Virus record (IMG/VR): IMGVR_UViG_3300028082_000009 | Span: 1-21,094 of that record | DNA length: 21,094 nucleotides | Source of the DNA: a virus | Direction: 5' to 3' (one strand) | Shown here: positions 2,442 through 17,086 of the stretch, piece by piece | Layout of the letters: each line of letters begins with the position of its first letter | Numbering within the stretch: the first letter of the stretch is position 1 | Notes under the pieces: model-generated | The model's database searches: none | The model's input: the letters and a program-made list of their open reading frames with translations, nothing else | Told to the model about the DNA's origin: nothing | Program-made: the position numbers and the translations under genes

Positions 2442-2458
2442 TCTGGCGTGACGACATG

Positions 2459-2497
2459 ATAATTAAGGCCACGCAACATTTTAGTGGCCTTAATTAT
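2459..2497. terminator. 14-bp perfect hairpin after int (terminator or att-associated)
   Basis: Arms 2459-2472 (ATAATTAAGGCCAC) and 2484-2497 (GTGGCCTTAATTAT) are perfect reverse complements around an 11-nt loop. It lies between int and the DksA-like gene, ending 3 nt before that gene's GAGGA ribosome site. Only a short T-run follows (TTATTT), so it is a poor intrinsic terminator. Attenuation, mRNA stabilisation or a role in the attachment site are alternatives. Confidence 0.5.
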
Positions 2498-2509
2498 TTG
2501 AGGAATATC

Positions 2510-3888: not shown

Positions 3889-4115
3889 CTGCCTATCACC
3901 CGTGACAGAATCGCCAGCAAAACTGACGTCATTACAGTACCGGCGAGCCCATAAACGATCATTTTGACAGGGGTAAACTCAGCCCTTGTCACGTATATTT
4001 TCACCATCCCCTGGAGTGTGCTAATTTGCTCCTGTAACCGGATGACGTTATCGCTCAATTCTCTGATCTCGTCTGAATCACGCTCCAGACGTTCGCGCCG
4101 GTCTTGCCGTTCCAT
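3885..4115 (-). CDS. XhlA-like small coiled-coil membrane protein
   Basis: A 76-residue protein. Residues ~6-40 form a charged coiled coil with leucine/isoleucine heptads (ELSDNVIRLQEQISTLQGM). The conserved-looking YVTRAEFTPVKMIVYGLAG leads into a C-terminal membrane segment (~52-73). This is the layout of the XhlA/haemolysin family, which works with the holin and endolysin in some lysis cassettes. ATG at 4115 overlaps the endolysin stop by one base (TAATG), and the end overlaps the next gene by ATGA. Whether it is a second holin or a holin partner is not decidable here. Confidence 0.75.
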   Translation of the reverse strand: MERQDRRERLERDSDEIRELSDNVIRLQEQISTLQGMVKIYVTRAEFTPVKMIVYGLAGTVMTSVLLAILSRVIGR

Positions 4116-4810
4116 TATTTTTGCCCGAAGTAGGTTTTATATTTCTCCCGCCTTACATTAAGAATGTTCGCAACGTATTGGCGGTTGATAGTAAAAAAGG
4201 AGCTTCCATAGCCGGACACGGCCCGCTTAGATTTGAGACTGGTTTTCTCGACATTACCGAGCCAAATATTGGGATTACAGCCGCGCGTGTTTGCGCAGAG
4301 CCTTCGGTCCTGCAAAAGGCCGCCCTCCCCGCCGTTGTAGGCGGAAAGGGTAAAGGATATACGGTCTAAGTCACTGGCGGCCGAGGTCTGGCGGGTAAAA
4401 AGGTCATGATCCATTTCCACAAAGGCAATAAGCTGATAATGCGCATCGTAGCGATTCGACCATGACCAGCCCTTCAAACTGGGATATTGCTTCGCGAGCT
4501 GGGAGATCAGGTCATATTTGATCGTTCCATTGCTGTTATAGGTGCGGGTGAACTGTCCGAGGCCCACGCCATCTTCGCGAGACGTTTTCAGTTCAGCCCG
4601 GGGGTCCCAGCATCGCTCGCTCGTCAACGTAACGCAGGATTCTTGCTCAATCTGACCGGCCATAAACTCTGGCATTGGTACGGTTGGCCAATACGTATGC
4701 TGAGCGCTAACCAGGGCCGGAAGATACTTAACGGCATTCGTCGGAATACTGTCGCTGGCCCCCGCCATAAAACAACAGGCGAGAAGGAAAAGCATGATCA
4801 GCCGGCGCAT
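4115..4810 (-). CDS. Signal-peptide lytic transglycosylase (endolysin)
   Basis: A 231-residue murein hydrolase. MRRLIMLFLLACCFMAGA is a signal peptide with likely cleavage near Ala18. The mature part carries SLT-like motifs: QESC with Glu57 as likely catalytic residue, GVGLGQF (81-87) in place of GLMQ, and AYNGG (157-161). Four further Cys (67, 172, 178 and 59) may form disulphides in the periplasm. The start at 4810 is chosen because it overlaps the holin stop as TAATG; an in-frame ATG 15 nt upstream would add MGQSV inside the holin gene. Export by the host Sec system would make release holin-independent in principle, leaving the holin to trigger by depolarisation. Confidence 0.85.
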   Translation of the reverse strand: MRRLIMLFLLACCFMAGASDSIPTNAVKYLPALVSAQHTYWPTVPMPEFMAGQIEQESCVTLTSERCWDPRAELKTSREDGVGLGQFTRTYNSNGTIKYDLISQLAKQYPSLKGWSWSNRYDAHYQLIAFVEMDHDLFTRQTSAASDLDRISFTLSAYNGGEGGLLQDRRLCANTRGCNPNIWLGNVEKTSLKSKRAVSGYGSSFFTINRQYVANILNVRREKYKTYFGQK

Positions 4811-5133
4811 TACGCTTTGGCCCACAGGACTAAGGCCGCGAAGAGAATGGCCACGAAGATCATGACGGCCGATGACAGAATAGCGGCCGCGACGCTGCCT
4901 TTTTCGGTCTGTTCGATCAATAGCTTGAGGTCAACCCGATGGAAAACGATGCGAAAAATTATTACCGCGACGCCGCCCAAGACGGGTGAAAAAGTGATCC
5001 ATTCAATCAGCGTCTTTGCCATCGGCTCATCAACTTGATAAATGATAATGAGACACGGGATAATGAGCAAAAGAGCCGCCTGGTCAATAAAAGCGGCTAC
5101 GCGTTTGAAAAATGTTGCGAAAGGAAGTTTCAT
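4810..5133 (-). CDS. Probable holin, three membrane segments
   Basis: A 107-residue, strongly hydrophobic protein with three predicted membrane segments (~18-33, 46-64, 81-104) and a charged turn (HRVDLKLLIEQTEKG) between the second and third. Size, topology and position directly before the endolysin fit a class I-type holin that permeabilises or depolarises the inner membrane at a set time. It ends as TAATG with the endolysin. The start has GGAGAG 7 nt upstream, but that site lies in the 3' arm of a 12-bp hairpin whose 5' arm begins 2 nt after the HNH-like gene's stop. Its translation is therefore likely to depend on ribosomes reaching that stop. Confidence 0.75.
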   Translation of the reverse strand: MKLPFATFFKRVAAFIDQAALLLIIPCLIIIYQVDEPMAKTLIEWITFSPVLGGVAVIIFRIVFHRVDLKLLIEQTEKGSVAAAILSSAVMIFVAILFAALVLWAKA

Positions 5134-5135
5134 TT

Positions 5136-5172
5136 TAAAGCTCTCCAGAAAATAACTTAATGGAGAGCTTTA
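5136..5172 (-). promoter_or_regulatory. Hairpin holding the holin ribosome-binding site
   Basis: The arms TAAAGCTCTCCA and TGGAGAGCTTTA pair perfectly (12 bp: 5161-5172 with 5136-5147, loop 13 nt). The holin Shine-Dalgarno GGAGAG (5146-5141) is wholly within the 3' arm, 7 nt from ATG 5133. No T-run follows, so this is not a terminator. It should mask the site unless opened by ribosomes finishing the upstream HNH-like gene. Confidence 0.65.
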
Positions 5173-5174
5173 CA

Positions 5175-5705
5175 TCACGACACTCGTTCTTCGTGGTGCA
5201 AAATTTCATCGCTATTAAATTGGTATCCTTCAATCCCATATTTCTGCGCTATCCATAGCGGGTGCGGCATCGTGTGTATGCCCTCGTCGCGGCCTATATG
5301 GTGTTCCTTGCACAAAAGCATGCCATTAGCTCGCATATCATCGACAAACTGATAGGGGTCCTGCGGGATGCGTATTTCAGCTCCGTTAACGAGGACCTCC
5401 ATTGCGCCGGCAAAAAAGGTTTCCCAGTCAAATTGCTGAGCATGGATGCCCCATTTCCCGGCTTTGCAATCCTTGCTAAATTCATCCCAGTCGATCATGT
5501 TGGTCATCGACCATTCGATAGGGTGATGGTGGGCCTCCAGCGGGTGTTCTAACTCCGGCCCGGTGCGTCCGCAAATATAGCAGCATTGCTCACGTTCGAT
5601 CAGCGTTTTCCGAGTCCGTTCAAATAGCGACGATGATTTTCGCTTTTCATGCTCGGGGATATTGATATCAACAGAGAGGGTCTGCTTAAAGTCGTTGGTT
5701 TCCAT
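5175..5705 (-). CDS. HNH-like zinc-binding protein
   Basis: A 176-residue protein. A CxxC knuckle (Cys42-x2-Cys45, CYICGRTG) is followed by EAHHHPIEW (His59-61), a ~70-residue Trp/Asp-rich insert, then LLCKEHH (Cys132, His135, His136) and HTMPHPLW. The order CxxC-HH-CxxH is that of His-Cys-rich HNH/zinc folds, so a nuclease is possible, but the usual central Asn and final His of an active HNH site cannot be placed with certainty. The gene stands between the tail fibre genes and the holin, with a terminator hairpin immediately before its ATG and a second hairpin right after its stop. Its GGAG lies inside the terminator stem, 7 nt from the start. It may be a mobile endonuclease or a regulator of the lysis switch. 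Confidence 0.7.
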   Translation of the reverse strand: METNDFKQTLSVDINIPEHEKRKSSSLFERTRKTLIEREQCCYICGRTGPELEHPLEAHHHPIEWSMTNMIDWDEFSKDCKAGKWGIHAQQFDWETFFAGAMEVLVNGAEIRIPQDPYQFVDDMRANGMLLCKEHHIGRDEGIHTMPHPLWIAQKYGIEGYQFNSDEILHHEERVS

Positions 5706-5736
5706 AAAAAAACTCCGCAGTGATTGTCTGCGGAGT
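5706..5736 (-). terminator. Intrinsic terminator overlapping the HNH-like ribosome-binding site
   Basis: Read on the minus strand: ACTCCGCAG (5736-5728), 7-nt loop, CTGCGGAGT (5720-5712), then six more T (5711-5706) that run directly into ATG 5705. A 9-bp GC-rich stem and seven Ts make a textbook rho-independent terminator. GGAG at 5716-5713 in the 3' arm is also the only plausible Shine-Dalgarno for the next gene. Confidence 0.88.
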
Positions 5737-5759
5737 GTGGAGTCACGACGGGGAATGCG

Positions 5760-6302
5760 TTACCAGGTAATGGCTTCAGCGGCGGCCGTGGTGGTTGCTG
5801 CATTAACCTGCGTATTTAGGCTAATGAGCCTTGCTTGTGCCGCATTGAGGTAGGCGAGCCAATCAGAACTGACTTTTGTCACCTGATCAGCAGTATGTGC
5901 CACAAATGCCCATACTCCACCGATAGGCTGACACCACAACGATGCGGTTGTGTCAGTGGCGGCCGCGCTGGCAAGATTCTGCTGGTCGGTGGCCGTGCTG
6001 GGATAATTGTAAACAGAACCCAGCGCATCAGAGGTAAATCCGGCATATAAATATGTCTGGCAAGACTGAGATAATAGGTTGTTTTGCGCAGTTTGTGCCA
6101 GCAATAGCAATTCGGCATCCGTGGGTGGGATAATAACGCCATTGGAAATGGTATACCCTTCTGGGTTATTGTAAACCTCAAGGGTACATTCTACTGCCCC
6201 ATCAGGAAATGGCGGAGTATTATCGTTACCATTTTCATCAACGGATTCATAAAGACATCCAGTTGATATAAATCCGTTTACTAACCAAAGATAATATTTC
6301 AT
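5760..6302 (-). CDS. Tail-fibre-associated protein (DUF4376-type C-terminus)
   Basis: A 180-residue protein starting MKYYLWLVNG, with GCLYESVDENGNDN and an acidic middle part (IIPPTDAELLLLAQTA) typical of small proteins encoded just after phage fibres. The last ~75 residues, with TDQQNLASA and a terminal helix ending in TTTAAAEAITW, resemble DUF4376. In other phages such proteins are tail fibre assembly factors or minor tip components. ATG 6302 has AAGGGG upstream, 12 nt after the fibre stop. It is the last gene before the terminator, so it closes the tail structural segment. Confidence 0.75.
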   Translation of the reverse strand: MKYYLWLVNGFISTGCLYESVDENGNDNTPPFPDGAVECTLEVYNNPEGYTISNGVIIPPTDAELLLLAQTAQNNLLSQSCQTYLYAGFTSDALGSVYNYPSTATDQQNLASAAATDTTASLWCQPIGGVWAFVAHTADQVTKVSSDWLAYLNAAQARLISLNTQVNAATTTAAAEAITW

Positions 6303-6314
6303 TTATTGTTCCCC

Positions 6315-8408
6315 TTAAACCGTTGGAATAAATACTGCCATAAGGTTGACAGCCATGCCTTCCGTGCTTGATGCGGTGATATTAAACGTGATCGTAACCG
6401 CAGCACCTTTAGTTACATAAACCAATCCATGTATGACGCAAATATTATTATACTCAGTTTGTGAGGCTATCGCTGCGTTGGTTACTGTGACGGTTGAACC
6501 GGTAAGTAGTGTATTATACGTACCCCCATAGCCCAAACAATTAATTATATATTCTCCCTTATATGGCGCTGTAAAAGTAATTGATGTTGATATTGATGAC
6601 GTGGATCCATTGGACGAGGAACTGAAATAATTACCTCCAATCTGAGTCAGTGAAACTGCCTGATTTGAGAATGCTGCAGGCATGATCTGTGCAGCCCCGC
6701 CACCACCAATGATCTTAAATAAATTGGTACTTGATGCATAGCTTAATAGGAATTTACCATTGAGCTCTCCTCCTTGCAGCGGGGTGGCATTCTGCCCGAC
6801 TATAGCTATAGGGCCTATACCGTTTACCATCACGGTGGCAGGCCCGGTATTAGTGAAAGCAGCCGTAATGAGAAAGGTCATGCCATCAGTCAATGAGGAA
6901 TAGGCTGGAGTAGGATTAATAACTAATGCATTAACTACACCGGTATCTACCCAGTAACAGGGGTTAGCGCGGATCTGATTCAGGTTTGGGACCTGGTTTA
7001 AAATGAAATTGGCGCCATCCCAAATGATATTGCAGCAGACGCCCTGAGCTAGGGTGAAAGTAGTAAAAGCAACGCCATTTACATTAAAAATACCAGAGGA
7101 TGGAATTAGGGTTATGACCCCTGCATTCGTATTTATGAATTCCAGCGATGCGCCGGCTAATACCCCTGTAATACTTGGCAGTGTCAACGTGAAAGGTGTG
7201 GCGCTCCCGCCCTCAACCAACTTACCCCAATCTGTTGCTACCATCGTGGCAGTTGCAGTATAGCTCTTGGCTCCAGCAAGATTACCCATAGCCCGCTGTA
7301 CAAACGAATCGGTCGCAAATCGGTTGCTATTATCAAACTGGGGCGCTTCAAGTCCGTAGTCGGCATCTTGTACAACGAATTGAGACCCGTCCCAAATGAG
7401 ATCGCAGTTCATCCCGGGCATAAGGATGAATGTTGTCGCTGGGGTCCCCTTAAGATTGATATTTGCCGTAGAGGATAGGGTGACGTTGTTGGCGCCACTG
7501 TTGAAAAATGACAATGCAGAACCGGCCGTAACGCCTGCGGTGCTGGGCAACGTCAAGGTAAAAGCGGCTGCGCCGTTGACTTCTATGAGTTTGCCCCAGT
7601 CGGTCGTTACCATCGTTGCGGTAACTGTGTATGCGGATTGGCCAGCCTTATTGCCAAGCGCCTGCTGTACAAAGGCCGCAGTTGCTGTCTGGCGGCTATT
7701 CGTGAATTGGGGTGGCGTCAGCGCATAGTCGCTTTCTGTTGCAACAAAATTAGTGCCATCCCAGACGATCTCACAGTTCATTCCGGGCAGGAGCGTGAAA
7801 GTGCTTGCAGTGGACCCTTTGACGTTAAACGCCCCGGATGAGGGGGTCAGTGTGACGGTCGCTGTGCCGGTATTGAACAGAGCAAAGCCAAACCCGGCAA
7901 GAACGCCAGCAATGCTGGGCGTCTCCAGCGAGAAAGCGGATGCGCTGCTAACCTCGATCAACTTTCCCCAATCGGTAGCGACCATCTGACCGGTAGCCGC
8001 ATAGAGATTACCGCCGGCCTTACCGCCGATACCGATTTGACTGAGCGTCAGCGCACCTGATTGGCCGCCAATGCTGACAACGGGGGATGCTGACTGTAAT
8101 TTCCAGTTATTGATATTTGATGCGGGCAAGCTTGTCAGCACGTAGTCAAACCCGGTATCGGCCCGCGTCGCCGTATCGCCTACTTTAGCAATCAGCGCCA
8201 CCATGGCCGTGCCGGTAGCGACGGCGGTATGGACGGGCATGGCCGCTGTGGGAATATTAGCTATTGGGAAATGGCCGGTGTTATCCAGCGGGGTCAATAG
8301 CCCGTCAATCATTGTCAACGACTCCGCGATACGCGGAACATCATCGCTGAGCTGGTTGGCGATATTCGGCAGAGGGAGAGCGTTATCCGGCGTTAAATTG
8401 TTAATCAT
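6315..8408 (-). CDS. Tail fibre / receptor-binding protein with three internal repeats
   Basis: A ~697-residue protein (start chosen at ATG 8408, 6 nt from AAGGA; ATG 8411 and TTG 8414 are alternatives). Residues ~1-110 look like a particle-attachment and trimerisation region. Then three repeats of ~123 residues follow, each with a TDWGKL motif (near 147, 271 and 394, counted from the TTG), a beta-rich stretch, WDG (218, 341, 465) and, in the first two, a PPQF/APQF...FVQ linker. The C-terminal ~90 residues (ITFTAPYKGEYII ... VNLMAVFIPTV) look like a jelly-roll/C1q-like tip, the likely receptor-binding part. It lies between the DUF4815 protein and the DUF4376 protein. Copy number of such repeats usually varies between related phages. 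Confidence 0.85.
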   Translation of the reverse strand: MINNLTPDNALPLPNIANQLSDDVPRIAESLTMIDGLLTPLDNTGHFPIANIPTAAMPVHTAVATGTAMVALIAKVGDTATRADTGFDYVLTSLPASNINNWKLQSASPVVSIGGQSGALTLSQIGIGGKAGGNLYAATGQMVATDWGKLIEVSSASAFSLETPSIAGVLAGFGFALFNTGTATVTLTPSSGAFNVKGSTASTFTLLPGMNCEIVWDGTNFVATESDYALTPPQFTNSRQTATAAFVQQALGNKAGQSAYTVTATMVTTDWGKLIEVNGAAAFTLTLPSTAGVTAGSALSFFNSGANNVTLSSTANINLKGTPATTFILMPGMNCDLIWDGSQFVVQDADYGLEAPQFDNSNRFATDSFVQRAMGNLAGAKSYTATATMVATDWGKLVEGGSATPFTLTLPSITGVLAGASLEFINTNAGVITLIPSSGIFNVNGVAFTTFTLAQGVCCNIIWDGANFILNQVPNLNQIRANPCYWVDTGVVNALVINPTPAYSSLTDGMTFLITAAFTNTGPATVMVNGIGPIAIVGQNATPLQGGELNGKFLLSYASSTNLFKIIGGGGAAQIMPAAFSNQAVSLTQIGGNYFSSSSNGSTSSISTSITFTAPYKGEYIINCLGYGGTYNTLLTGSTVTVTNAAIASQTEYNNICVIHGLVYVTKGAAVTITFNITASSTEGMAVNLMAVFIPTV
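6970..8020 (-). repeat. Three tandem ~371-bp repeats within the fibre gene
   Basis: The sequence encoding TDWGKL and its surroundings recurs near 7225, 7597 and 7967, a period of about 371 bp, with recognisable nucleotide similarity (for example around the ACCATCGT and CCCCAATC/CCCCAGTC segments). Divergence between copies indicates an old duplication kept by selection. The outer limits given are approximate. Confidence 0.7.
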
Positions 8409-8417
8409 CATCAATCC

Positions 8418-11400
8418 TTAATGCGCGGTGCTGATAGAGCGAAGGTTGAATAGAAAGGGCCGCGCGCTGGCAGAACCCGCAATATTGATTTTTAATTTGA
8501 ACTGGGCGGCGACGAAATCGCTGAGATAAAACTGATACTCATAAACGCCGTTCTGGGCATCGAGGACTGTTGCCGAAATAGAAGGGACCAATGTAAATAC
8601 GGTCGGCGTCGCGGTCGACGCTACATAGACGCTAGCAGTCGATCCGGACGGCAATATCGCATCGAAAATTACGCGGATATTACAGCCGGCAGAGTTCCCG
8701 ATGACGGCCACGGATTCATAAACATCCGCTTGGTCCAAAATTCCGGTGATAATTTCGCTGCCCGGGTAAAGGATTGCCCCGGCATTCGCTGTCGCCGTCA
8801 GTATGGCCTTGACATCGATATTGCCGGTTACCGCACTGCTGAGGTTGATTACACCACCATTAGTGGTATTGATGATGGTTCCGTCAGGCATCGTCAGCTG
8901 GATAGACGCGCCTGCGCCCGTGGCGGGTTCCTCGGTCATCGCCGAGATAATCAGATCAGTTACGCCCGTGACCGCCAAAGTGCCGAGGTCTACCGTTTCC
9001 GTTGTGGCGCTATAGGAACGGGCCAGCAGGCGGAATGTCAAATCCTCGGTCTGTTGTGCCGACCAGGTGCTCGCGTTGGAAGACGTCAACATCACGCCGG
9101 CATACGGCTGGCTTGTTACATATTGGCCAGCATTAGAGTCGTACTGGCCCATTTGGGCGATGGCTACGGCTGCTGTCGCGTCATTACACATCACAACGAT
9201 AGCGTATTCGGTATCAGCGGTCGCATAGTATGGCGAGTTGAACACGAAGCGAGTCCACTGCCCCGCGGTGATCTGCGATGGATTAAGCGCAGCCTCGGCC
9301 AAAACAGTCTGCGTCGGGAAACCTACGCTCGTTTCGCGGATTTGGACTTTTACCTGCGTGGTTCCGACTGCGGTAAACCACAGGTCAATACCAGATAACT
9401 GATATGAGCTATCGAGCGTGAAAGTTTCAGCAAGGGGATCAAGGTAAACCGTATCGATCGTTGTCACTTTCTCTTCGGTGACGGTGATCATCTCACCTTG
9501 ACCAGTAAAGGAAGCGGTAGCATTGCCGCCCCTTGACCCGGTAAAAGCCACGGATTTTGTGCCAGCTTGTACATTGGCGGGGATGGTAAATGTACCAGAA
9601 ATATTACCATTCACATCACCGGTCAGGCTACCAGTCGGCGTTACTGAGATCCCGTCAAATTTTACAGATGAAAGTGTTTCGCCATAGCCAAACCCGGTCA
9701 AAGCAAAGGCCACCGGAATTTGGCGCAGATATTCCTCTTCCGTGACAGAGGAACCCAGCGTTTCCGTCGACGTTGATGCGCTGGTTGTGACGGTAGATCC
9801 ATGGATAACAGAATACGGGTCGTAGATATAGCTGATAAATTCTTGCGTTTGCGCGGTTGCCCACACAGTGTCATACCCCGTCCAGCGGTCGACCGCTGGC
9901 GTTAGCGTCGCGGTGCCTGGGAACGCGGCGAAAGCCATATAGGGGTTGATGAGGCTTGAACTGGTCCGAGAACTATTCGAAATTACGGGGTTATGCGTCC
10001 AGGCGCAAGAAGTTGCGGACAAAACGTCATTGGGCAAATAGTTTGCGGTGCCGTTGATAGCCAATGCGAGCGCGTTACTGACCACCGCCGCGGTGTTCGG
10101 CACGCCGTCGTCGCGCTTGCTGTTATCGCTGAACGCGTCGGTGAAGATCCCCTCACTAGCGGCTGATTCATAGCTCATTGCATTCGAACTGAGATTGATT
10201 TGTGCGACGAGACTATAGAGCGTGGAAATCTGGTTTTGCATATTTTCCAGCTCATACATGCTCACCATGCGCACGCCGTCATTTGTTACGTATGTACCCG
10301 TCGACGTCCACGCCTGATAAATCTGCGCCAGTTCCAGCATGCCAGACGGAACCGCCGGCGCAATCGGAGTATATTCGTTCGCTACACCGGTGATCCAAAC
10401 AAACGCCCCGGTGCTGTTTACGCATAAACGGTCAATACGCGGCAGCATTGCGGTGTACGTTGTAAGAATTTGCGTACCGACAACAGCGCCCGCAACCGTG
10501 TAGCCATTTTCGGTAACGTTGGTCGGCGTGGCACTGATGATATGCTGGTAAGTGACTGTGTAGGTCGAACCGGGCAACGGTTCAGCTCCCCCTGGGGACC
10601 AATCAACCTCACCCCTCGTCAGTTGATAATCGGTTCCTGGGACGTAGGTTGTCGAACCCTGGGTGACGGAAACGATAGAAACTACCGATCCGTAAGTCAG
10701 CGGGTCAACTGATCCAACAACCGAACCATGGATAATGCTTTCAGTCGTTTGCGTGGTAATCATCGCGGACTGAACTGCGTTCAAAGGCGTTACGTCAAGA
10801 CTGACGACCTGGGAAACGGCGTTTGTGGAAATAAACGGCTCGCTCCCTACGGCTTTAAGATCCGGCGTTGGGCCATAAGTCAGTCGGGTTGCTGTTGATT
10901 TTTTTACAGCGTACCCGTTGATCCGGGCGCTGCCGCTATCGACGTTGTAAACCTGGTTGCCCGAGCTGTCGTTAGACATTTGGGTGACGGCCAGTCCGCT
11001 CACAACGTAGTTTGAACCGTTGCTATCAACGTCGTATTGCGCGATCGCTTGGTTAACCGTGTTAGATGATGGCGCGGATGACGAGGTACGAAGATAACCA
11101 GAGTCAACGTAGTAGACTGGGTAAAAATCACCAACCGTACCATCGCCTGAGAAGCCCCACTGCGGCGCAATTTCAAGCCGTCCGGCGCCTGGCTGATTAT
11201 AGTTTTGAGTGGTGGTGGCGGGATCAAGCAACGTAGGATCTTGCGCTTCCGTGACAACAGAGGATATAAGCCAAATGCCGATAGTCACTGTGCCCGTGAG
11301 CGATACTGTGAAAGTGCTGGCTGCCAATGAACGAATCGCGCCGCTAACGTAAGCTGAACCCGCTGCCATTTGCACGGCGCCGGTTGTCGCGTTCACTACG

Positions 11401-11591
11401 CAATCACAGCCATTTATGATATTGCCATCGGTAAACGAGGCATCTCCAATCCCTTTTAGCTTAGCCAGCAAAAGTGATTGGATTTCATTGGCCTCAGCAG
11501 ATTGAAGCGCATTACCGGCACGGAATAGCCACTGTTCATAATTTTTCGTTGGATCGTAACGGTCGAAATATTCCGCAAGAGACAGCGTCAT
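8418..11591 (-). CDS. Large tail/baseplate structural protein (DUF4815-type)
   Basis: A 1057-residue protein. The N-terminus (LAEYFDRYDPTKNYEQWLFR and ALQSAEANEIQSLLL) is characteristic of the DUF4815 family of phage tail proteins, which continues through ~570 residues including the YDVDSNGSNYVVSGL and DGVPNTAAV regions. The rest is Ser/Thr/Gly-rich beta domains; FTLDSSYQLSGIDLWFTAVG onward resembles a carbohydrate-binding or jelly-roll module, and the last ~100 residues end in LFNLRSISTAH. It probably connects baseplate and fibre. ATG 11591 has AAAGGAA 6 nt upstream; an in-frame TTG at 11597 is less likely. It ends 9 nt before the fibre start. DUF4815 proteins have no proven function known to me. 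Confidence 0.87.
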   Translation of the reverse strand: MTLSLAEYFDRYDPTKNYEQWLFRAGNALQSAEANEIQSLLLAKLKGIGDASFTDGNIINGCDCVVNATTGAVQMAAGSAYVSGAIRSLAASTFTVSLTGTVTIGIWLISSVVTEAQDPTLLDPATTTQNYNQPGAGRLEIAPQWGFSGDGTVGDFYPVYYVDSGYLRTSSSAPSSNTVNQAIAQYDVDSNGSNYVVSGLAVTQMSNDSSGNQVYNVDSGSARINGYAVKKSTATRLTYGPTPDLKAVGSEPFISTNAVSQVVSLDVTPLNAVQSAMITTQTTESIIHGSVVGSVDPLTYGSVVSIVSVTQGSTTYVPGTDYQLTRGEVDWSPGGAEPLPGSTYTVTYQHIISATPTNVTENGYTVAGAVVGTQILTTYTAMLPRIDRLCVNSTGAFVWITGVANEYTPIAPAVPSGMLELAQIYQAWTSTGTYVTNDGVRMVSMYELENMQNQISTLYSLVAQINLSSNAMSYESAASEGIFTDAFSDNSKRDDGVPNTAAVVSNALALAINGTANYLPNDVLSATSCAWTHNPVISNSSRTSSSLINPYMAFAAFPGTATLTPAVDRWTGYDTVWATAQTQEFISYIYDPYSVIHGSTVTTSASTSTETLGSSVTEEEYLRQIPVAFALTGFGYGETLSSVKFDGISVTPTGSLTGDVNGNISGTFTIPANVQAGTKSVAFTGSRGGNATASFTGQGEMITVTEEKVTTIDTVYLDPLAETFTLDSSYQLSGIDLWFTAVGTTQVKVQIRETSVGFPTQTVLAEAALNPSQITAGQWTRFVFNSPYYATADTEYAIVVMCNDATAAVAIAQMGQYDSNAGQYVTSQPYAGVMLTSSNASTWSAQQTEDLTFRLLARSYSATTETVDLGTLAVTGVTDLIISAMTEEPATGAGASIQLTMPDGTIINTTNGGVINLSSAVTGNIDVKAILTATANAGAILYPGSEIITGILDQADVYESVAVIGNSAGCNIRVIFDAILPSGSTASVYVASTATPTVFTLVPSISATVLDAQNGVYEYQFYLSDFVAAQFKLKINIAGSASARPFLFNLRSISTAH

Positions 11592-11602
11592 TATCAATTC
11601 CT

Positions 11603-12079
11603 TTAGAATTCGAGCACGAACTCAAATTGCTGGCGCACAGAAGAAGAAAGAGCGATTGCCGTGATATATTCAAGCAGCAGCATTTGCCCAGGAGTAGCAA
11701 CTTGGCTTGGCGTAACATAAGGCGCAGTTACGCCCGCATCTAGCGTTGTCCCAACGAAAATCGCTAGTTCCCTGATGGTCTGCCCTGCCGCGTCAGCAGC
11801 ATTGAACAGAGTCCGAAAATAAAGGTAATTAGTGGGTACCGTCGAAAGATCATAATTTCCACTGGTCATCTGAATGGCCCCAGCGCTATCTGGCGTCACG
11901 TATTGGGCCTGTGTTACAACGCGGCGTCCCACCTCGGCCAGCAAGGCCGTAGTCGCTACATTCTCGCTCGGGGGCGTTGTATCCCAGATGGTTTCCCCGT
12001 TTCCCCATGCGAGATAAATTGGCTGCGCAATGATGGCGGCAGCCATCGCTACGCGCCCTGAATTAGTCAAAATGGACAT
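11603..12079 (-). CDS. Small tail protein of unknown role
   Basis: A 158-residue protein (MSILTNSGRVAMAAAI...) with a WGNGETIWDTTPP segment, a central LLAEVGRRVV helix and a C-terminal strand QQFEFVLEF. Proteins of this size and start are common between the wedge and fibre genes of contractile-tail prophages and may be fibre adaptors; I do not recognise a named family. ATG 12079 has a strong GGAGG 6 nt upstream. The gap before it holds one copy of the GCATCACGACTCG repeat, and it ends 11 nt before the DUF4815 start, so the two are probably co-translated. Confidence 0.75.
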   Translation of the reverse strand: MSILTNSGRVAMAAAIIAQPIYLAWGNGETIWDTTPPSENVATTALLAEVGRRVVTQAQYVTPDSAGAIQMTSGNYDLSTVPTNYLYFRTLFNAADAAGQTIRELAIFVGTTLDAGVTAPYVTPSQVATPGQMLLLEYITAIALSSSVRQQFEFVLEF

Positions 12080-12108
12080 ATAAATCCTCCGTTATTAAAT
12101 TCATTTGA

Positions 12109-12121
12109 GCATCACGACTCG
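12109..12121 (-). repeat. Intergenic 13-bp repeat, copy 1
   Basis: CGAGTCGTGATGC (minus strand) lies 8 nt after the stop of the wedge-like gene and is identical to a copy at 14485-14497. Both sit in the two largest gaps of the baseplate run. Confidence 0.55.
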
Positions 12122-12129
12122 TAAACCAA

Positions 12130-13347
12130 TCATGCCGGAATGCTTTCGTGTGCTGAGTTAATGCCAGGGGCATAAGTCATGGTTCCTGTCACGTTTGCAG
12201 TCCACAAAGCCGCCTGGGCCCACGTTAGTGAGCCGAGAGGATAGGTGTAGATTGTCGCGTCATGCCGGCTCATCGCAGCACTATCTACATGTGGGATGAG
12301 GGTATTTACAGCGGAGGATGACCGGTCTTGAATGGGGTAGTGTTTCGCGTCGATATATCCAACGACAGCAGCGTTAATAGCTGATCCAAGTGGCATTACC
12401 GTCGCCATCATGTCCGGGCTTTTTAATATTTTATTGACGTCCAAATAGAGATCGTCAGAGAGCCGGTTGAAATCTACGCGGGCATTCGTGGCGTTTCTGA
12501 GTTCAATGTGCTGAGAAAAAACGGTTCCATTAATGCCACCGCTGATAAACGAAATAAGCTGTTCTTCAGGGGGTAGCACAAGCACGCCGGAGGCTTTATT
12601 TCGGTTGATGACTTCTAGTACATCAGTCCAGTCAATTGGCGTGGCGGATACCGGCTGGATGAGGAAAGGGCCGATACTGGTCCCATCGTAAAACTTTGCG
12701 GAACCTGAAAGAGCCGACTTATCCAAGAAAAAAAGATTAGCCATTGGCTCTTTTATAGTGATGTCTTTCCCCGTGATATCTAGCACCGCTTGCTCAATGG
12801 CACGGGCATTCACGCGCAGGCGGAACGCTTCGGCGGGGATAAGCAGCCGATAAGCCGCGTCGGTCATTGCCTGGCTTGTCTTTGCTACCCCGTAGATATC
12901 ACCGTGAAATTGTAACCATTCGCCCTCTGCTGTAGGGACTGCCATTTGATCAACGGCCAGGGGGATAGACTTTTTGGCTACGCGCAGCTCCCGCGCATAG
13001 GCGCCGAATACTGCCCGTAAAATATCCCGCCAGGCGAAGAGTCGATTCGCTGTCAGCGTATTGCCGCTACCCTCAGTTAGGACGCATGCAGACAGGGCGG
13101 CAAATTCGCTTTTTATTTCGCTGATCTGAAAGCCATCCTGTGCCATTTTGGCGGCCAGGGCGGTGATGGTGAAGGCTGACAGGTCATAAGTGTACGTGGT
13201 GCCGCTGAGGACGCAGGTGAGACGTTCATCGCCAACTGACCAAGACACACCGGCAGCGTTATTAATAAAAAACGCCACGCCCTGATCTGGGGTTGTATCC
13301 AGTACGCGCCAGCGGACCCACCGCAGAAGCCTATCCAGCATTGTCAT
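12130..13347 (-). CDS. Baseplate wedge protein, tail protein I/DUF2612-like
   Basis: A 405-residue protein directly after baseplate J. The stretch GDIYGVAKTSQAMTDAAYR and LLIPAEAFRLRVNARAIEQ matches the pattern of tail protein I and DUF2612 proteins (short Gly-rich turn, D-x2-YR-x-LL, then a helix before IT-x-K-D-I), which form the outer baseplate wedge in P2/Mu-like tails. The protein is about twice the usual length of P2 gpI; the extra C-terminal ~150 residues include YIDAKHYPIQDRSS and may contact the fibre network. ATG 13347 overlaps the baseplate J stop (ATGA), supporting partnership of the two. The family call is by motif and gene order. Confidence 0.7.
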   Translation of the reverse strand: MTMLDRLLRWVRWRVLDTTPDQGVAFFINNAAGVSWSVGDERLTCVLSGTTYTYDLSAFTITALAAKMAQDGFQISEIKSEFAALSACVLTEGSGNTLTANRLFAWRDILRAVFGAYARELRVAKKSIPLAVDQMAVPTAEGEWLQFHGDIYGVAKTSQAMTDAAYRLLIPAEAFRLRVNARAIEQAVLDITGKDITIKEPMANLFFLDKSALSGSAKFYDGTSIGPFLIQPVSATPIDWTDVLEVINRNKASGVLVLPPEEQLISFISGGINGTVFSQHIELRNATNARVDFNRLSDDLYLDVNKILKSPDMMATVMPLGSAINAAVVGYIDAKHYPIQDRSSSAVNTLIPHVDSAAMSRHDATIYTYPLGSLTWAQAALWTANVTGTMTYAPGINSAHESIPA

Positions 13348-14456
13348 GATAATTGGCTCACGGTGACAGTGCCTGGAACAAGTACCTGATTTTGCCCACA
13401 GGTGGTATTTTCTGTCACATTAATGACGACACTTTCAATGCCAGCGACACCGAGTACCGCTGTTTCAATGGCGTCAGCATAAAGGATATCTCCGGTATCA
13501 ATTCCTGACAGAAGCGTGGCGAAAGCACTGGTAACGCTGGTTTGCGTTGATGTCCCAACGGTATAGCCATCGAGCATGGAGACTTGGATAGTGAGACTGA
13601 TTGGCACTTGCGCCATGGCGGCCACGGTTGCTCCCACGCCGCCGGCGCGATAGCCAGGGGTACGGGAGCCATCGGGATTTATCCAACCATCGATAATTGT
13701 TTGGGCAGTCGAGACAAGGGCGCCGGAGGGCGCGCCAGATGAACCATAAATATAGAGCTTTACGAATCCAGCGAGAGAACTGTCAATGCCTGAACGGGTT
13801 ACATACTCGGTGATATCGCCGGTTGAGTCAGCAAGAGTGGCCGTCCCGATGCCGTAGAGCAGCGCATCATCAGTACCGCGTGATAGCGCAGCTATGTAGT
13901 CCGAAAACCGAGTAAGGCGCTCGCTATCCGTCTCCGTATCACGGCCGGAGGTGGTGCCCGCGTTGCTGATCGTGTAAGTGCCATCGTCAAATGAGGTTGA
14001 CGAGTTAATCGCCCCTGCGGCGATGTTATAAGCAGATCCAGAGGCTGCTGCGATGACGGGAAAAGCTATTGAGGTTGTTCCCGCGGCCCATGTCAGCGCT
14101 TCGGTCGAGTAGTAAACTCGGCCATCAGCAGACGTAAATGGCGTCTGATCGGCAATGGGTATGGCCGCCAATAATGCGACTGGCGCGGTGATCGTTACTA
14201 CATCAGTGGCATAAGCCGCGGCCAACTGCGTAAATTTAAACGTTTTGAAAACGGCAGTAGGGATGGCCTCTTTCAGTCCATTAAAAACCTGAATATAAAA
14301 TTGCTCTAGCTCATTAGCCGGCGCCTCGATCAGTGTGCGGGCCGTAGACCCGGGGATGAGGTCAGTGATTTTTGTCGTTACGCCGCGCACATAGTTGAGC
14401 ATCGATGCCGAAATAGCGACAAAACTTTTAAGCTGGAACGCCAAGGCAAAGCCCAC
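13344..14456 (-). CDS. Baseplate J-like wedge protein
   Basis: A 370-residue member of the baseplate J family (P2 gpJ, Mu gp47, T4 gp6 relatives). The N-terminal FQLKSFVAISASML ... IPGSTARTLIEAPANELEQ and FNGLKEAIPTAVF is typical, followed by the beta domain (TPFTSADGRVYYSTEAL), then TDSERLTRFSDYIAALSRGT and YVTRSGIDSSLAGFVKLYIYG. The C-terminus ends in VLVPGTVTVSQL. GTG at 14456 is the furthest plausible start, with only a weak ribosome site; ATG at 14402 would remove the family-like FQLKSF segment. It follows the gp25 fusion and overlaps the next gene by 4 bp. With gp25-like and gpI-like proteins it builds the wedge around the hub. Confidence 0.88.
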   Translation of the reverse strand: MGFALAFQLKSFVAISASMLNYVRGVTTKITDLIPGSTARTLIEAPANELEQFYIQVFNGLKEAIPTAVFKTFKFTQLAAAYATDVVTITAPVALLAAIPIADQTPFTSADGRVYYSTEALTWAAGTTSIAFPVIAAASGSAYNIAAGAINSSTSFDDGTYTISNAGTTSGRDTETDSERLTRFSDYIAALSRGTDDALLYGIGTATLADSTGDITEYVTRSGIDSSLAGFVKLYIYGSSGAPSGALVSTAQTIIDGWINPDGSRTPGYRAGGVGATVAAMAQVPISLTIQVSMLDGYTVGTSTQTSVTSAFATLLSGIDTGDILYADAIETAVLGVAGIESVVINVTENTTCGQNQVLVPGTVTVSQLS

Positions 14457-14484
14457 CGTGCTGATTTATATTGTGGGCAATGTC

Positions 14485-14497
14485 GCATCACGACTCG
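14485..14497 (-). repeat. Intergenic 13-bp repeat, copy 2
   Basis: The same CGAGTCGTGATGC lies 2 nt after the stop of the gp25 fusion gene. In this copy GTCG-TGATG-CGAC could form a 4-bp stem; copy 1 lacks the matching arm. Confidence 0.55.
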
Positions 14498-14499
14498 AT

Positions 14500-15150
14500 T
14501 TAGGCGCTACCGCTCGGCGATGATGTTGAGGCAGTAGTGTCGACTGTATTCCCGTCGATGGCCATGGCGTTAGCGACAACAGAAATACTATCCCCGGCAG
14601 AAGTCCCGGTAACGCTGGTCACTGACGATATCCGGTAATCTGCTTTCAGCGATGATTTAACGTATTGCGCGCCCAATAAATCCGCCGCAGGCCCGGTCAC
14701 TTTGCCCAGCAACTCATGCAACCGGCATCCATATTTAGGGTGCCGGATAAGCTGCCCTTTGGGCGTGTCCAGTCTCTTACCCAATTGCTCGGATAAATTA
14801 TCTATACCGCTGACCGTCATGATATCGCCGGTGTCATCCACCGCCAGGCGTCGGTTAACAAGGGCCACGTCGCGTTCAAATACCTGTCCCGTTTCCTGCG
14901 TTGTCGAAGTAACGCCGGCAGCCGCGGGGACGCGGATAAGCGACCCGGTCAGGAGTACAGAGCTGGATACCAGGTTGACGTCATCCGTGAGATACGGATC
15001 GCTCAGATTGTTCATCCAGATCAGCTCGATCCAACGATTAGCGTCTCCGAGTTCGCGGTATGCCACCATCTGCAACGTATCGCTATGGTGTGTTTTTGCC
15101 AAGCGATAACTTGGCATTGCCTTTTCGAAATCTGTCAAATATTCAGACAT
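14500..15150 (-). CDS. LysM-like plus gp25-like baseplate fusion protein
   Basis: A 216-residue protein made of two parts usually encoded separately. Residues ~14-76 (SYRLAKTHHSDTLQMVAYR ... RWIELIWMNNLSDPYL ... GSLIRVP) have the LysM/tail protein X pattern (a D-TLQ-hydrophobic helix, then NN-L and a final IRVP strand). Residues ~105-200 carry the gp25/GPW signature (SEQLGKRLDTPKGQLIRHP and YGCRLHELLG). Thus a hub-linker LysM domain and the sheath-initiator/wedge gp25 are fused. The tail is Ser/Thr-rich. ATG 15150 overlaps the end of the next upstream gene by 8 nt; AGGGGA is ~10 nt away, rather distant. Confidence 0.85.
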   Translation of the reverse strand: MSEYLTDFEKAMPSYRLAKTHHSDTLQMVAYRELGDANRWIELIWMNNLSDPYLTDDVNLVSSSVLLTGSLIRVPAAAGVTSTTQETGQVFERDVALVNRRLAVDDTGDIMTVSGIDNLSEQLGKRLDTPKGQLIRHPKYGCRLHELLGKVTGPAADLLGAQYVKSSLKADYRISSVTSVTGTSAGDSISVVANAMAIDGNTVDTTASTSSPSGSA

Positions 15151-16327
15151 TTAAACTTATCCCCTGAGTTATGATTGACAGATTACGGCTTATTTCCGGG
15201 ATGCTAAGCGCGGCAAGCACAGGATCGTAACCAGCCAACGTGGACAGGCTTTCTGCTGCTGCGGATGTTATTGTCACAGGGGAGGCGGCTGCTTGGAGCA
15301 GGTCAAATACATTTGACCCGGCATAAATGCTCGCGGGCTCCCCGCCAGTCGTGGATGAGCAGTTTGACGCGCCAAAAACGTCGGAGTAATCCTCGTATGT
15401 TTCAGCAGCTTTTAGCGAGTTATTGAAAATGCAGTAAAGCTCGCAATAAGTGCTGGCAACCATCGAAAGCTGACTTTGTTCAAAGTCGCCGATCCCCGCC
15501 ACTGCGGCGAAGGTACGAAAAACATTCATGCCTGTGAGCGCGACATCTCCCGCGATGCCAATAAGCGTACCAGCCACGCTGCCTATAGCAGATTCACCTG
15601 TCGCAATAACGGACTGCACAGAGGAAAGCACGTCATAACTCATGTCGGCAAATTCAGAGACGGCGTCGGCAACGGGCGCCACTACCGACTCGACCTCATC
15701 CTCAGCCGTAGTAATGAGTCCATTAATGCTGTTCAGATAGCCATCCAGGGACGTGAGGGCATTATCCAACGCGGTTAAGCCGGTTGAGAAATCCCCGCTA
15801 AACGGTGAGTCAGCCGAAACAGCATCAGGGTCAGTATCGATAGCCTGCAAATTGATATTGTACTGATATAACAACGGCCGAGATTTGCTGCGGCGTAAAA
15901 TGAACTGCGAAGGCGATACACTGTAAATAAAATTATCCAGCGTATCGATGAACAGCAGTTTGATCGTGGCGGGGTCGATCCCTGCATCGATAGCTGACTG
16001 TCGCGCATCATGATAATCGTGCTGGATAAGCGTATTCAGGGATTCGAATGCGTCAGCGCCATCCTCTCCGCTCACTCCGCCTGCGCGCCACCCGGTTGTG
16101 CCGGCAATCGTAACGGTTGGCAGGCCCCCGCCAAAACTATCGACCCATCCTTGCACCTGGCGCCCAAGCGTCTGCGTCACGGCTACGCGAGAAGGTTCCG
16201 TCCGGGTCAAATCTTCGGGCCGGATTTTTAACGTAAGCAGTGAGCCCGATCCATCTTGGGTCTGAAGTAAAAACGATATTGGCCTGACGCCTGCGCGCTG
16301 ATCAGTTGGAGCTGGGTATGTAGTCAT
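15143..16327 (-). CDS. Baseplate protein with DNA-circularisation/hub-linker-like N-terminus
   Basis: A 394-residue protein. Residues ~15-165 (ISFLLQTQDGSGSLLTLKIRP, SRVAVTQTLGRQVQGWVDSF, TVTIAGTTGWRAG, ALN-type helix, LLYQYNINLQAI) have the beta-barrel pattern of tail proteins placed between tube and hub in Mu/PBSX-type tails (Mu N/XkdQ-neighbour proteins). The middle (~185-300) is a long helical, Ala/Ser/Asp-rich region with repeated small residues, and the C-terminus is unrecognised. It follows the spike by 15 nt and precedes the LysM-gp25 fusion, so it probably anchors tube to baseplate. The Shine-Dalgarno is weak (GGA ~13 nt away), suggesting coupling to spike translation. Confidence 0.68.
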   Translation of the reverse strand: MTTYPAPTDQRAGVRPISFLLQTQDGSGSLLTLKIRPEDLTRTEPSRVAVTQTLGRQVQGWVDSFGGGLPTVTIAGTTGWRAGGVSGEDGADAFESLNTLIQHDYHDARQSAIDAGIDPATIKLLFIDTLDNFIYSVSPSQFILRRSKSRPLLYQYNINLQAIDTDPDAVSADSPFSGDFSTGLTALDNALTSLDGYLNSINGLITTAEDEVESVVAPVADAVSEFADMSYDVLSSVQSVIATGESAIGSVAGTLIGIAGDVALTGMNVFRTFAAVAGIGDFEQSQLSMVASTYCELYCIFNNSLKAAETYEDYSDVFGASNCSSTTGGEPASIYAGSNVFDLLQAAASPVTITSAAAESLSTLAGYDPVLAALSIPEISRNLSIITQGISLNV

Positions 16328-16342
16328 TTTATGAGTTTTCCA

Positions 16343-17086
16343 TCACGCCGCTGCCGGCGGCCCAGATATGTCATCACCTTCTTTAACTTTGGTGTGGCCG
16401 TGGTTTACCTGGCTTATGCCTTCAGCTACCTGATCACCATCGCTATCGATTTCACCAGTGAAATGCGCTTTTGGCGTGTCGAACGTCATCTGATTAGTGG
16501 CTTTAAAATTGATATCTGGCGCGGTTATCGCCAGCGCATTTGTCAGCGTAACATCACCCGTACCGTTAGGGTTGAGATGGACGACCACGGCTTGCCCCCC
16601 CAGGCTAATTGTGACTGAGACAGCCTTATCGGTATTTCTATCGACAAGAAGTGTCCCGTCGACGTTTTTACCTGCAAATTGCGGCGCCGTAGTGTTTTCC
16701 CCGACTTGAACAAATGCGCCGCTGGGGTGAATAATGCCGAAATTGCCATCACCATCGGTATACGATATGACATCAGATTGGTGACGCTCGAATTTCAAAA
16801 GGGGGTCAGCGAATAGCATCTGATTGATTTGGGGGTACTGAAATCCCACGACCATCGGGGTACGGCCAACCATGTCGATCACGGCCAGAATATCCTGACC
16901 GGTCAACTGAGTAATATCCCATTTATTTTGTTTCGCGGGTACGGCGGGTAAATCGATTGATCCAGACCGCGTGCTGGCCGACTTTGATAATAACTGGACG
17001 CCAGATAATCGGCTGCCGTCGTCAACCATAACCATGTCGACAGATACGTCCTCGGGATGCGTTGCAACAACAATGCCTTTTCTCAT
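16343..17086 (-). CDS. Baseplate spike protein (gpV/gp45-like)
   Basis: A 247-residue spike. The N-terminal OB-like part (GIVVATHPEDVSVDMVMVDDG) leads to a central beta region and then a repetitive triple-beta-helix-like stretch (GDVTLTNALAITAPDINFKA). Near the C-terminus is NHGHTKV with His229-x-His231, the pair that coordinates an iron ion at the apex in P2 gpV/phi92-type spikes, followed by DDISGPPAA. ATG 17086 is chosen because it forms an ATGA overlap with the hub stop and has GGGA 7-8 nt upstream; the in-frame start at 17137 would add 17 residues inside the hub gene. The trimer punctures the outer membrane when the sheath contracts. Confidence 0.87.
   Translation of the reverse strand: MRKGIVVATHPEDVSVDMVMVDDGSRLSGVQLLSKSASTRSGSIDLPAVPAKQNKWDITQLTGQDILAVIDMVGRTPMVVGFQYPQINQMLFADPLLKFERHQSDVISYTDGDGNFGIIHPSGAFVQVGENTTAPQFAGKNVDGTLLVDRNTDKAVSVTISLGGQAVVVHLNPNGTGDVTLTNALAITAPDINFKATNQMTFDTPKAHFTGEIDSDGDQVAEGISQVNHGHTKVKEGDDISGPPAAA

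What the first reader, a model, noticed from the sequence alone, without database searches (positions are those of the whole stretch)
5173..14497. A GTCGTGATG motif recurs at late-gene ends
CGAGTCGTGATGC is identical at 12109-12121 and 14485-14497, each within 8 nt after a stop. The core GTCGTGATG also spans the HNH-like stop (5173-5181), GTCGTGA lies after the DUF4376 gene stop (5743-5749), and a one-mismatch form covers the spike stop (16341-16349). All are on the minus strand at gene ends, in gaps that are otherwise very short. Such linkers could serve module exchange by homologous recombination or bind a protein or RNA.
Basis: seen in the sequence. Interest (0 to 1): 0.5.

Follow-up and report, generated by a model that had tools for sequence, protein, structure and literature searches.

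The report
Phage late promoter with leaderless starts
The repeated nine-letter word is not a gene-end linker but very likely the core of a promoter that sits just before the late genes of a widespread family of 90-kb bacterial viruses, where messages often seem to begin exactly at the first letter of the gene.

Summary
The true unit is 16 bp, GTCGTGA-nnn-CAnAAT, pointing at the next gene. It recurs at homologous junctions in phages whose J proteins are 35-49% identical, with 8-15 copies per genome. A matrix trained on six phages finds 290 sites on the structural strand of 95 relatives' loci against 13 in controls. A at position 11 and T at 15 match the A-11/T-7 of a sigma70-type -10 box. Numbered so, +1 falls at or within 2 nt of the start codon in half of the unique sites (leaderless). 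There is no -35 box. Of 68 other sites tested, 28 carry a hairpin whose 5' arm begins before +1, so only read-through RNA can fold it fully, as for T4 lysozyme. I conclude: a phage-specific late promoter read by host RNA polymerase plus a phage factor. Best factor candidate (inferred): two unnamed cysteine-rich proteins found in 15 of 15 genome-length records. The larger often ends in a clamp-binding-like motif (QGELF, QLSLF), hinting at T4-like coupling of late transcription to replication. No experiment was done.

The parts
16334..16349 (-). Promoter site GGCGTGA-TGG-AAAACT; predicted +1 at 16327 = A of the ATG of gene 15143-16327 (leaderless)
   Evidence: PWM 13.6 bits, ATG at offset 22; ST4 has a site (record 50180) 22 nt before the conserved start of the homologous gene
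15143..16327 (-). Baseplate/virion structural gene (phrog_1011) downstream of the site at 16334-16349
14479..14494 (-). Promoter site GTCGTGA-TGC-GACATT before the baseplate J gene; predicted +1 at 14472
   Evidence: PWM 17.4; GTCGTGA in the homologous gap of ST4, Yen8-01, Dolphis, Jeremy and phiT5282EW, not of Touem01 or Mecenats66
14451..14478 (-). Hairpin GCCCAC(14478-14473)/GTGGGC(14456-14451); 5' arm follows the -10 box directly, 3' arm lies beside the start
   Evidence: p=0.03
13344..14456 (-). Baseplate J-like gene (phrog_6); start is GTG 14456 or, by homology, TTG 14444
12103..12118 (-). Promoter site GTCGTGA-TGC-TCAAAT; predicted +1 at 12096, then a GGAGG ribosome site
   Evidence: PWM 15.0; GTCGTGA in the homologous gap of ST4, Yen8-01, Dolphis, Jeremy, phiT5282EW and Touem01, not of Mecenats66; no significant hairpin (p=0.43)
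11603..12079 (-). Virion structural gene (phrog_1394)
5734..5749 (-). Promoter site GTCGTGA-CTC-CACACT; predicted +1 at 5727
   Evidence: PWM 21.3
5706..5736 (-). Terminator-like hairpin ACTCCGCAG(5736-5728)/CTGCGGAGT(5720-5712) plus T-run up to the ATG at 5705; the 5' arm overlaps the -10 box and reaches the predicted +1
   Evidence: p=0.02
5175..5705 (-).
5166..5181 (-). Promoter site GTCGTGA-TGT-AAAGCT before the small gene in the position of the holin; predicted +1 at 5159
   Evidence: PWM 16.7; sites before the gene preceding endolysin in ST4 (annotated holin), Yen8-01 and phiT5282EW
5136..5172 (-). 12-bp hairpin (5172-5161 / 5147-5136) whose 3' arm carries the GGAGAG ribosome site of the gene starting at 5133
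   Evidence: p=0.02
4810..5133 (-). 107-aa gene in holin position (weak, below-cutoff DUF350 match), upstream of the endolysin homologue 4115-4825
   Evidence: synteny with ST4
2445..2460 (+). Possible further site GGCGTGACGACATGAT overlapped by a 15-bp hairpin (2458-2472 / 2484-2498), before a TraR-like zinc-finger gene (ATG 2510)
   Evidence: PWM 13.8, hairpin p=0.02; not shown in relatives

Best explanation
The motif is the core of a late promoter class private to this phage family. GTCGTGA (about -22 to -16) is read by a phage-made factor, and CAnAAT (-12 to -7) is opened by the host RNA polymerase as a -10 box; there is no -35 box. Initiation at +1, 6 nt after the box, gives leaderless mRNA when the gene's start codon sits there, and otherwise a short leader. 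In a good part of the leadered cases a hairpin spans the promoter. Its 5' arm begins in -10/+1, so RNA arriving from upstream folds it (hiding the ribosome site or ending transcription), while RNA started at the promoter lacks part or all of that arm and is translated. Shown: the motif, its spacing, strand, conservation, hairpin geometry and predicted ribosome-site release. Inferred: that it is a promoter, the +1 position, host polymerase, and the factor. The factor is most likely the conserved cysteine-rich protein 'ZnA' (mostly 165-200 aa), perhaps with its neighbour 'ZnB' (about 80-130 aa); confidence in that identity about 0.45.
For: (1) GTCGTGA sits in homologous gaps of six other phages, two of them near-identical. 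(2) Of 12,733 heptamers with 30 or more copies in six genomes, GTCGTGA ranks first for an ATG at one fixed offset (22 of 101 at +22, log10 p -18.2) and first for a conserved downstream base (T at 15 in 74 of 101, A at 11 in 72 of 101); structural strand 64 of 86 with both, other strand 1 of 15. (3) 95 relatives' loci: 290 sites on the structural strand, 55 on the other, control mean 12.7, maximum 36; 89 of 95 loci hold at least one. (4) A11/T15 equal A-11/T-7 if offset 22 is +1, and offsets 21-22 favour C (53%) then A (57%); no -35 signal. (5) 183 of 365 unique sites have a start at offsets 21-24. (6) Hairpin at p<=0.05 in 28 of 68 leadered sites, 3.4 expected; the 5' arm crosses the predicted -1/+1 border in 21 of the 28. 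(7) Predicted ribosome-site accessibility rises from 0.390 to 0.545 when RNA starts at +1 (n=140) against 0.459 to 0.498 in control starts (n=83), p=1.4e-7. (8) ZnA and ZnB are in 15 of 15 genome-length records although replication genes are not detected in several of them. In the 14 motif-rich ones ZnA lies on the strand of most sites (8-15 against 0-2), and in 12 of 14 no site lies within 14 kb upstream of it. (9) No Sigma70_r2 match in 14 of 15 records.
Against: No transcription start has been mapped in any of these phages as far as I found. Mecenats66 has ZnA and ZnB but no clear excess of the motif (3 against 1.65 control), and a suspected variant motif in it did not hold up. In G001 and G014 a site lies 1.0-1.5 kb upstream of ZnA. 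Not every hit is at a start: ST4 9645 is inside the gene region, and by a crude ORF call several GTCGTGA copies in Dolphis, Touem01 and PHB04 lie inside genes. The 55 sites on the other strand of the 95 loci were not resolved. 40 of 68 leadered sites show no significant hairpin, and that test searched only for 5' arms starting at offsets 8-22, so the overlap with the promoter was partly imposed. ZnA has no recognisable DNA-binding or polymerase-binding domain. One record, G013, does encode a Sigma70_r2 protein. The window is a fragment without the ZnA region.
Confidence: 0.86

Rival explanations
1. Ordinary extended -10 promoters used by the host's own sigma factor or another host sigma, with no phage factor; GTCGTGA is just a strong upstream extension.
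For: The -10-like box has sigma70's two key bases; G at offset 8 (54 of 90) and T at 7 in a minority (31 of 90) resemble the TG of an extended -10.
Against: The same seven bases are kept in phages and prophages of alpha-, beta- and gammaproteobacteria (classes recalled from the organism names). In four whole host genomes (19.3 Mb) only 17 strict matches occur; 13 fall in prophage-size clusters or at a fetched prophage locus (G048 C2, G047 C1 723-760 kb, G046) and 4 could not be placed. No structural-strand site of ST4 lies in its replication region. Known extended -10 motifs do not reach -22 (recalled).
Confidence: 0.12
2. A lambda-Q-like antiterminator binds GTCGTGA next to the -10 box and modifies polymerase so that it ignores terminators.
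For: The Q binding element of lambda also lies just upstream of the -10 box, and lambda Q has a zinc site (both recalled). ZnA is cysteine-rich and precedes the site-bearing region. Terminator-like hairpins follow some sites (6 of the 28 significant hairpins have a T-run at once after the 3' arm).
Against: 8-15 sites per genome, many at a fixed distance to a start codon, suit promoters better than one antitermination locus; no PHROG match of ZnA.
Confidence: 0.1
3. The motif acts as RNA: a processing or translation signal in a long late transcript.
For: Mostly sense-strand and just before start codons; hairpins are common.
Against: The two best conserved bases downstream fit a DNA -10 box; leaderless spacing to ATG equals -10 to +1 spacing; 40 of 68 leadered sites have no significant hairpin.
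Confidence: 0.06
4. The specificity factor is the small HTH protein (A1) rather than ZnA.
For: Present in the six motif phages; in Mecenats66 not found by BLAST and only weakly by profile, E 5.4e-8.
Against: Not found in six motif-positive records of 81-93 kb, G013-G015 and G017-G019, which also lack detectable replication genes where tested.
Confidence: 0.05
5. Chance repeats or recombination linkers between modules.
For: Short words recur by chance in the window.
Confidence: 0.01

Closest known systems
T4 late promoters with gp55/gp33/gp45 (PMC2988020 and PMC7892883: passages seen)
   Same: A -10-like element without a -35 element; before late genes; host core polymerase; in T4 two phage proteins with C-terminal clamp-binding motifs. 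ZnA often has such a tail; by size ZnA recalls gp55 (about 185 aa, recalled) and ZnB gp33 (112 aa).
   Different: T4's box is TATAAATA; here there are a GTCGTGA block and a CAnAAT box. T4 late mRNAs are not known to me as leaderless. ZnA and ZnB show no sigma-like or gp33-like similarity in the searches made, and the clamp would have to be the host's.
T4 gene e / soc / I-TevI translational hairpins (PMC2988022 and PMC3014915: passages seen)
   Same: A late promoter lies in the 5' arm of a hairpin that hides the ribosome site in longer transcripts only; one window case precedes a putative lysis gene, as gene e does.
   Different: Here it recurs across many late genes and in several cases is also terminator-shaped.
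Single-subunit phage RNA polymerase promoters (T7, K11; recalled)
   Same: One compact block right before +1, repeated before late genes.
   Different: Sigma70-like A-11/T-7 spacing; no RNA_pol match in seven phage records (whose controls were silent) and no unassigned gene of 700 aa or more in the ST4 annotation.
Lambda Q / QBE (recalled)
   Same: A protein-binding word beside the -10 box; a zinc-type late regulator.
   Different: Many sites per genome instead of one; fixed distance to start codons.

Membership tests
Bacterial sigma70-type -10 promoter element | Hexamer with A at -11 and T at -7, 6-7 nt before +1 | tested here: met
   A at 11 and T at 15 in 84% and 85% of 295 GTCGTGA copies in relatives' loci; +1 is inferred from the ATG peak at offset 22, not mapped
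Classical sigma70 promoter | -35 hexamer about 17 bp upstream | tested here: not met
   At most 0.035 bits per column over 40 nt upstream, 368 sites
T4-type late promoter | TATAAATA box | tested here: not met
   Consensus is GTCGTGACGnCAnAAT
T4-type late promoter | Sigma-family factor (gp55-like) encoded by the phage | tested here: inconclusive
   Sigma70_r2 found in 1 of 15 records, controls ring in 10 of 14; gp55 itself is highly diverged, so a miss is weak
T4-type late promoter | Factor tethered to a sliding clamp by a C-terminal motif | tested here: inconclusive
   34 of 60 unique ZnA end in a clamp-like pentamer against 17 of 4018 stop-to-stop frames of 120 aa or more; binding not testable here
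Leaderless mRNA | Start codon at +1 | tested here: inconclusive
   183 of 365 unique sites have a start at offsets 21-24; +1 not mapped by experiment
RBS-sequestering hairpin of the T4 gene e type | 5' arm encoded upstream of +1, 3' arm covering the ribosome site | tested here: inconclusive
   28 of 68 leadered sites at p<=0.05, 21 of them with a 5' arm across the predicted +1; accessibility shift against controls; predictions only, +1 not mapped
Single-subunit RNAP promoter | Phage encodes a T7-like polymerase | tested here: inconclusive
   0 of 7 records, but the control genomes did not ring either
Lambda Q antitermination | Q-family protein | tested here: inconclusive
   ZnA has no PHROG match and no significant PDB fold match; a distant relative is not excluded
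Recombination linker | Shared sequence long enough for homology | tested here: not met
   Conservation stops at the unit's upstream edge

The most novel reading that the evidence does not exclude
A second, independent invention of clamp-coupled late transcription. A zinc-type phage protein (ZnA) with no sigma resemblance reads GTCGTGA beside a -10 box, is tethered by its flexible C-terminal QGELF/QLSLF tail to the host's own DNA sliding clamp, and so fires late, largely leaderless, genes only on replicating phage DNA.
Probability: 0.33. Interest if true: 0.92.

Novelty: new variant of a known kind. Interest (0 to 1): 0.74.

Why it matters
It gives a predicted promoter map for a family of ~90-kb myoviruses, many with an integrase (Dolphis, PHB04, ST4, Touem01, Yen8-01 without an annotated integrase in the stretch seen, and prophages of alpha-, beta- and gammaproteobacteria), in which I found no promoters described. 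It corrects start codons: portal and one baseplate gene in ST4 are probably annotated 90 bases too short. It offers a large natural set of candidate leaderless phage genes and of promoter-in-hairpin switches. It also names two unnamed conserved proteins as testable late regulators. If the clamp link holds, coupling of late transcription to replication is not peculiar to T4.

Tried and rejected
Nucleotide relatives of the window among phages: none. Single-protein scans of viral and genome contigs with window proteins: no relatives; a tail-tube alignment worked.

A first pattern for the longer motif was off by one base and found matches in only 3 of 7 phages; replaced by the listing. Ranking heptamers by plain over-representation did not single out GTCGTGA (rank about 3021, 102 seen against 91 expected): the word is special by strand, spacing and context, not by raw count.

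T7-like polymerase: no match, inconclusive. HTH protein A1 as regulator: first favoured, then weakened. A variant motif in Mecenats66 (TAGTGA): suggested by eye, not supported. 'ZnA absent from Mecenats66' was an artefact of the record's ends, corrected.

ZnA fold: no PDB match at E<=0.001, VIA best Z 2.3, one short viral relative at E 1.4e-7. ZnB: Foldseek nothing at E<=0.001; several of the top rows are zinc ribbons of RNA polymerase subunits, VIA best Z 4.8 over 41 residues, which may mean only the common zinc-ribbon shape.

Weaknesses of counts: the 95 loci include one record (L177) of the same length as the training phage PHB04 and some contigs that appear in both collections, for example L204/L247 and L206/L248; removes duplicates by 80-nt identity. 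Six of the 95 loci, all 4.3-7.2 kb long, had no site. The control set stopped at 83 of 400 planned, and 42 of its 365 sites had no assigned start. The 42 distant ZnA loci hold near-identical copies. The frames in the clamp-motif background are stop-to-stop frames, not genes. Relatedness among phages means that sites are not independent. The hairpin test allowed 5' arms only at offsets 8-22.
Full report
What was seen. On its own the nine-letter word is not unusual in the window (8 matches with up to one mismatch, 4.5 expected, 11 of 100 shuffles as many), so the question had to be settled with relatives.

Relatives. The window is a 21-kb virus contig with integrase, tail fibre, baseplate and virion structural genes and an endolysin homologue. 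It has no nucleotide relatives among phages, but its proteins match Aeromonas phage ST4, Yersinia phage fHe-Yen8-01, Pseudomonas phages Dolphis and Jeremy, Enterobacter phage phiT5282EW, Pseudomonas phage Touem01, Bordetella phage PHB04 and Morganella phage Mecenats66 (35-49% identity for the J protein). In six of these (PHB04 was not in that call), at the homologous gaps before the J gene and before the next baseplate gene, GTCGTGA stands again in the same direction, while the rest of the gap differs. It is absent at both gaps in Mecenats66, whose gaps are closed or 13 nt long, and at the J gap of Touem01, which is closed.

The unit. Whole-genome listing showed that the word is followed by a second conserved part. 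Without selecting the motif, every heptamer with 30 or more copies in six genomes, both strands (12,733), was scored. GTCGTGA ranked first for an ATG at one fixed offset (offset 22, 22 of 101) and first for conserved downstream bases (T at 15, 74 of 101; A at 11, 72 of 101). On the structural strand 64 of 86 copies have both bases, on the other strand 1 of 15. By plain abundance the word is not special. A 16-column matrix from 66 sites gives, at >=13 bits, 96 sites in the six genomes (83 on the structural strand) against 7.3 for shuffled matrices; 7 in the window against 0.51 (maximum 3); and 3 in Mecenats66 against 1.65. The five window sites on the structural strand all fall 22-50 nt before a gene start.

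Independent confirmation. A tail-tube profile fetched 80 viral loci (the best 80 of 119) and 15 bacterial loci. In these 95 loci the matrix finds 290 sites on the structural strand, 55 on the other, control mean 12.7 and maximum 36 over 21 control matrices; 89 of 95 loci have at least one. Of 295 GTCGTGA copies, 84% have A at 11, 85% T at 15, 107 an ATG at 22 and 43 at 23. One locus is probably a training phage and some are duplicates; the de-duplicated set, which also contains the training genomes, has 365 sites. In four host genomes (19.3 Mb) the strict leaderless pattern occurs 17 times, 13 of them in prophage-size clusters or at a fetched prophage locus.

Reading as a promoter. If offset 22 is +1, then A11 and T15 are A-11 and T-7, the two bases that matter most in a sigma70 -10 box (recalled), GTCGTGA covers -22 to -16, and the bases at -1/+1 favour C and A. 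Nothing is conserved in the 40 nt upstream, so there is no -35 box. Half of the unique sites (183 of 365) have a start codon at offsets 21-24, which would make those mRNAs leaderless or nearly so; 140 have a start at 30-74; 42 have none assigned. In ST4, 9 of 13 structural-strand sites lie within 80 nt of an annotated start. Two more (70203, 70172) lie just before the portal gene, the second 22 nt before its conserved upstream start, and one (50180) lies 22 nt before the conserved start of the baseplate gene homologous to window 15143-16327; both annotated starts are 90 nt later. One (9645) has no start nearby. The genes served are terminase, portal, protease, head-tail adaptor, tail lysin, three baseplate genes, holin, a gene annotated as ADP-ribosyltransferase and one small gene of unknown function; none is in the replication region.

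The hairpin switch. The commonest 5' arm start is offset 16, directly after the -10 box (9 of 28), 22 of 28 start at 17 or before, and 21 of 28 arms cross the predicted -1/+1 border; 6 of 28 are followed at once by a T-run. Folding predicts that the ribosome site is more open in RNA started at offset 22 than in read-through RNA (0.390 to 0.545, n=140; controls 0.459 to 0.498, n=83; p=1.4e-7). This is the design of T4 genes e and soc, where transcripts from late promoters lack the 5' part of an inhibitory structure (passages of PMC3014915 and PMC2988022). In the window it is clearest before 4810-5133 (holin position) and 5175-5705; the site at 12103-12118 has none.

The factor. No T7-like polymerase was found (inconclusive) and a Sigma70_r2 domain in only 1 of 15 records (controls ring). 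Comparing 16 sources by profiles, replication genes and a small HTH protein are not detected in several motif-positive records, but two adjacent small cysteine-rich proteins are in all 15 genome-length records; only the 21-kb window lacks them. The other proteins present in all 15 are mostly structural or are themselves late genes by position. ZnB follows ZnA within 700 nt in 77 of 80 loci. ZnA lies on the strand of most sites, and in 12 of 14 motif-rich genomes no site lies within 14 kb upstream of it, as expected for a gene made before the late genes. Among 29 records of 45 kb or more taken from the motif scan, 22 have ZnA, including all 16 motif-rich records between 80 and 100 kb; three records with one to three motif copies lack it, and four motif-bearing records of 50-69 kb, perhaps fragments, lack it. 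Motif sites also accompany ZnA loci: 56 on the ZnA strand and 18 on the other in the 38 closest loci (control 4.7 for both strands) and 83 and 1 in the 42 most distant (control 6.7), near-identical copies included. ZnA often ends in a pentamer like the bacterial clamp-binding motif (QGELF, QLSLF, QARLW; consensus recalled): 34 of 60 unique sequences at the very end, against 17 of 4018 frames. AlphaFold gives a confident body (mean pLDDT 87) with a loose tail there (last block 56). No known fold matched ZnA; ZnB resembles zinc ribbons in general. In T4, gp55 and gp33 both carry C-terminal clamp-binding motifs and the clamp activates late transcription (passages of PMC2988020 and PMC7892883). 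The analogy is suggestive, not shown.

Against. There is no start-site mapping. Mecenats66 keeps ZnA and ZnB without a clear excess of the motif. 26 of 60 ZnA lack a clamp-like pentamer at the very end. The tests share phylogeny. The window itself ends before ZnA.

Literature. Searches of the held open-access library for the motif with phage and promoter terms (393 papers match loosely, the 20 listed were seen as listings only; none), for the genus (one paper, listing only), for leaderless phage late promoters (one paper, listing only) and for the named phages (8 papers) showed no description of this promoter. Of the 8, two were searched: the Mecenats66 paper and the Touem01 paper do not contain the word promoter in their main text; the other six were not opened. 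Subscription papers are not held.

Noticed in passing
window 2445-2510, + strand: A possible site of the same kind overlapped by a 15-bp hairpin, before a TraR/DksA-like zinc-finger gene beside the integrase; relatives have the gene, but the site was not shown to be conserved.
   Followed up: partly
ST4 record OR261032, portal (68444-70060) and baseplate gene ST4_071 (48974-50068): Annotated starts look 90 nt too late; the promoter spacing points to starts at 70150 and 50158.
   Followed up: partly
record G013 83240-83446 (the record of L204): G013 alone among 15 records carries a Sigma70_r2 protein (190-aa frame); its role is unknown. A contig of the same length in the genome collection is titled Nitrosomonas sp. 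Nm132.
   Followed up: no
Yen8-01 77798-84250, ST4 83422-86955, phiT5282EW 45239-52012 (the last in reversed coordinates): Very large genes (annotated ADP-ribosyltransferase in ST4), homologous to each other and each preceded by a site; possibly proteins delivered with the DNA.
   Followed up: no
window 6999-7776: Three 37-nt imperfect repeats about 370 nt apart inside the tail fibre gene 6315-8414, probably repeated fibre domains.
   Followed up: no
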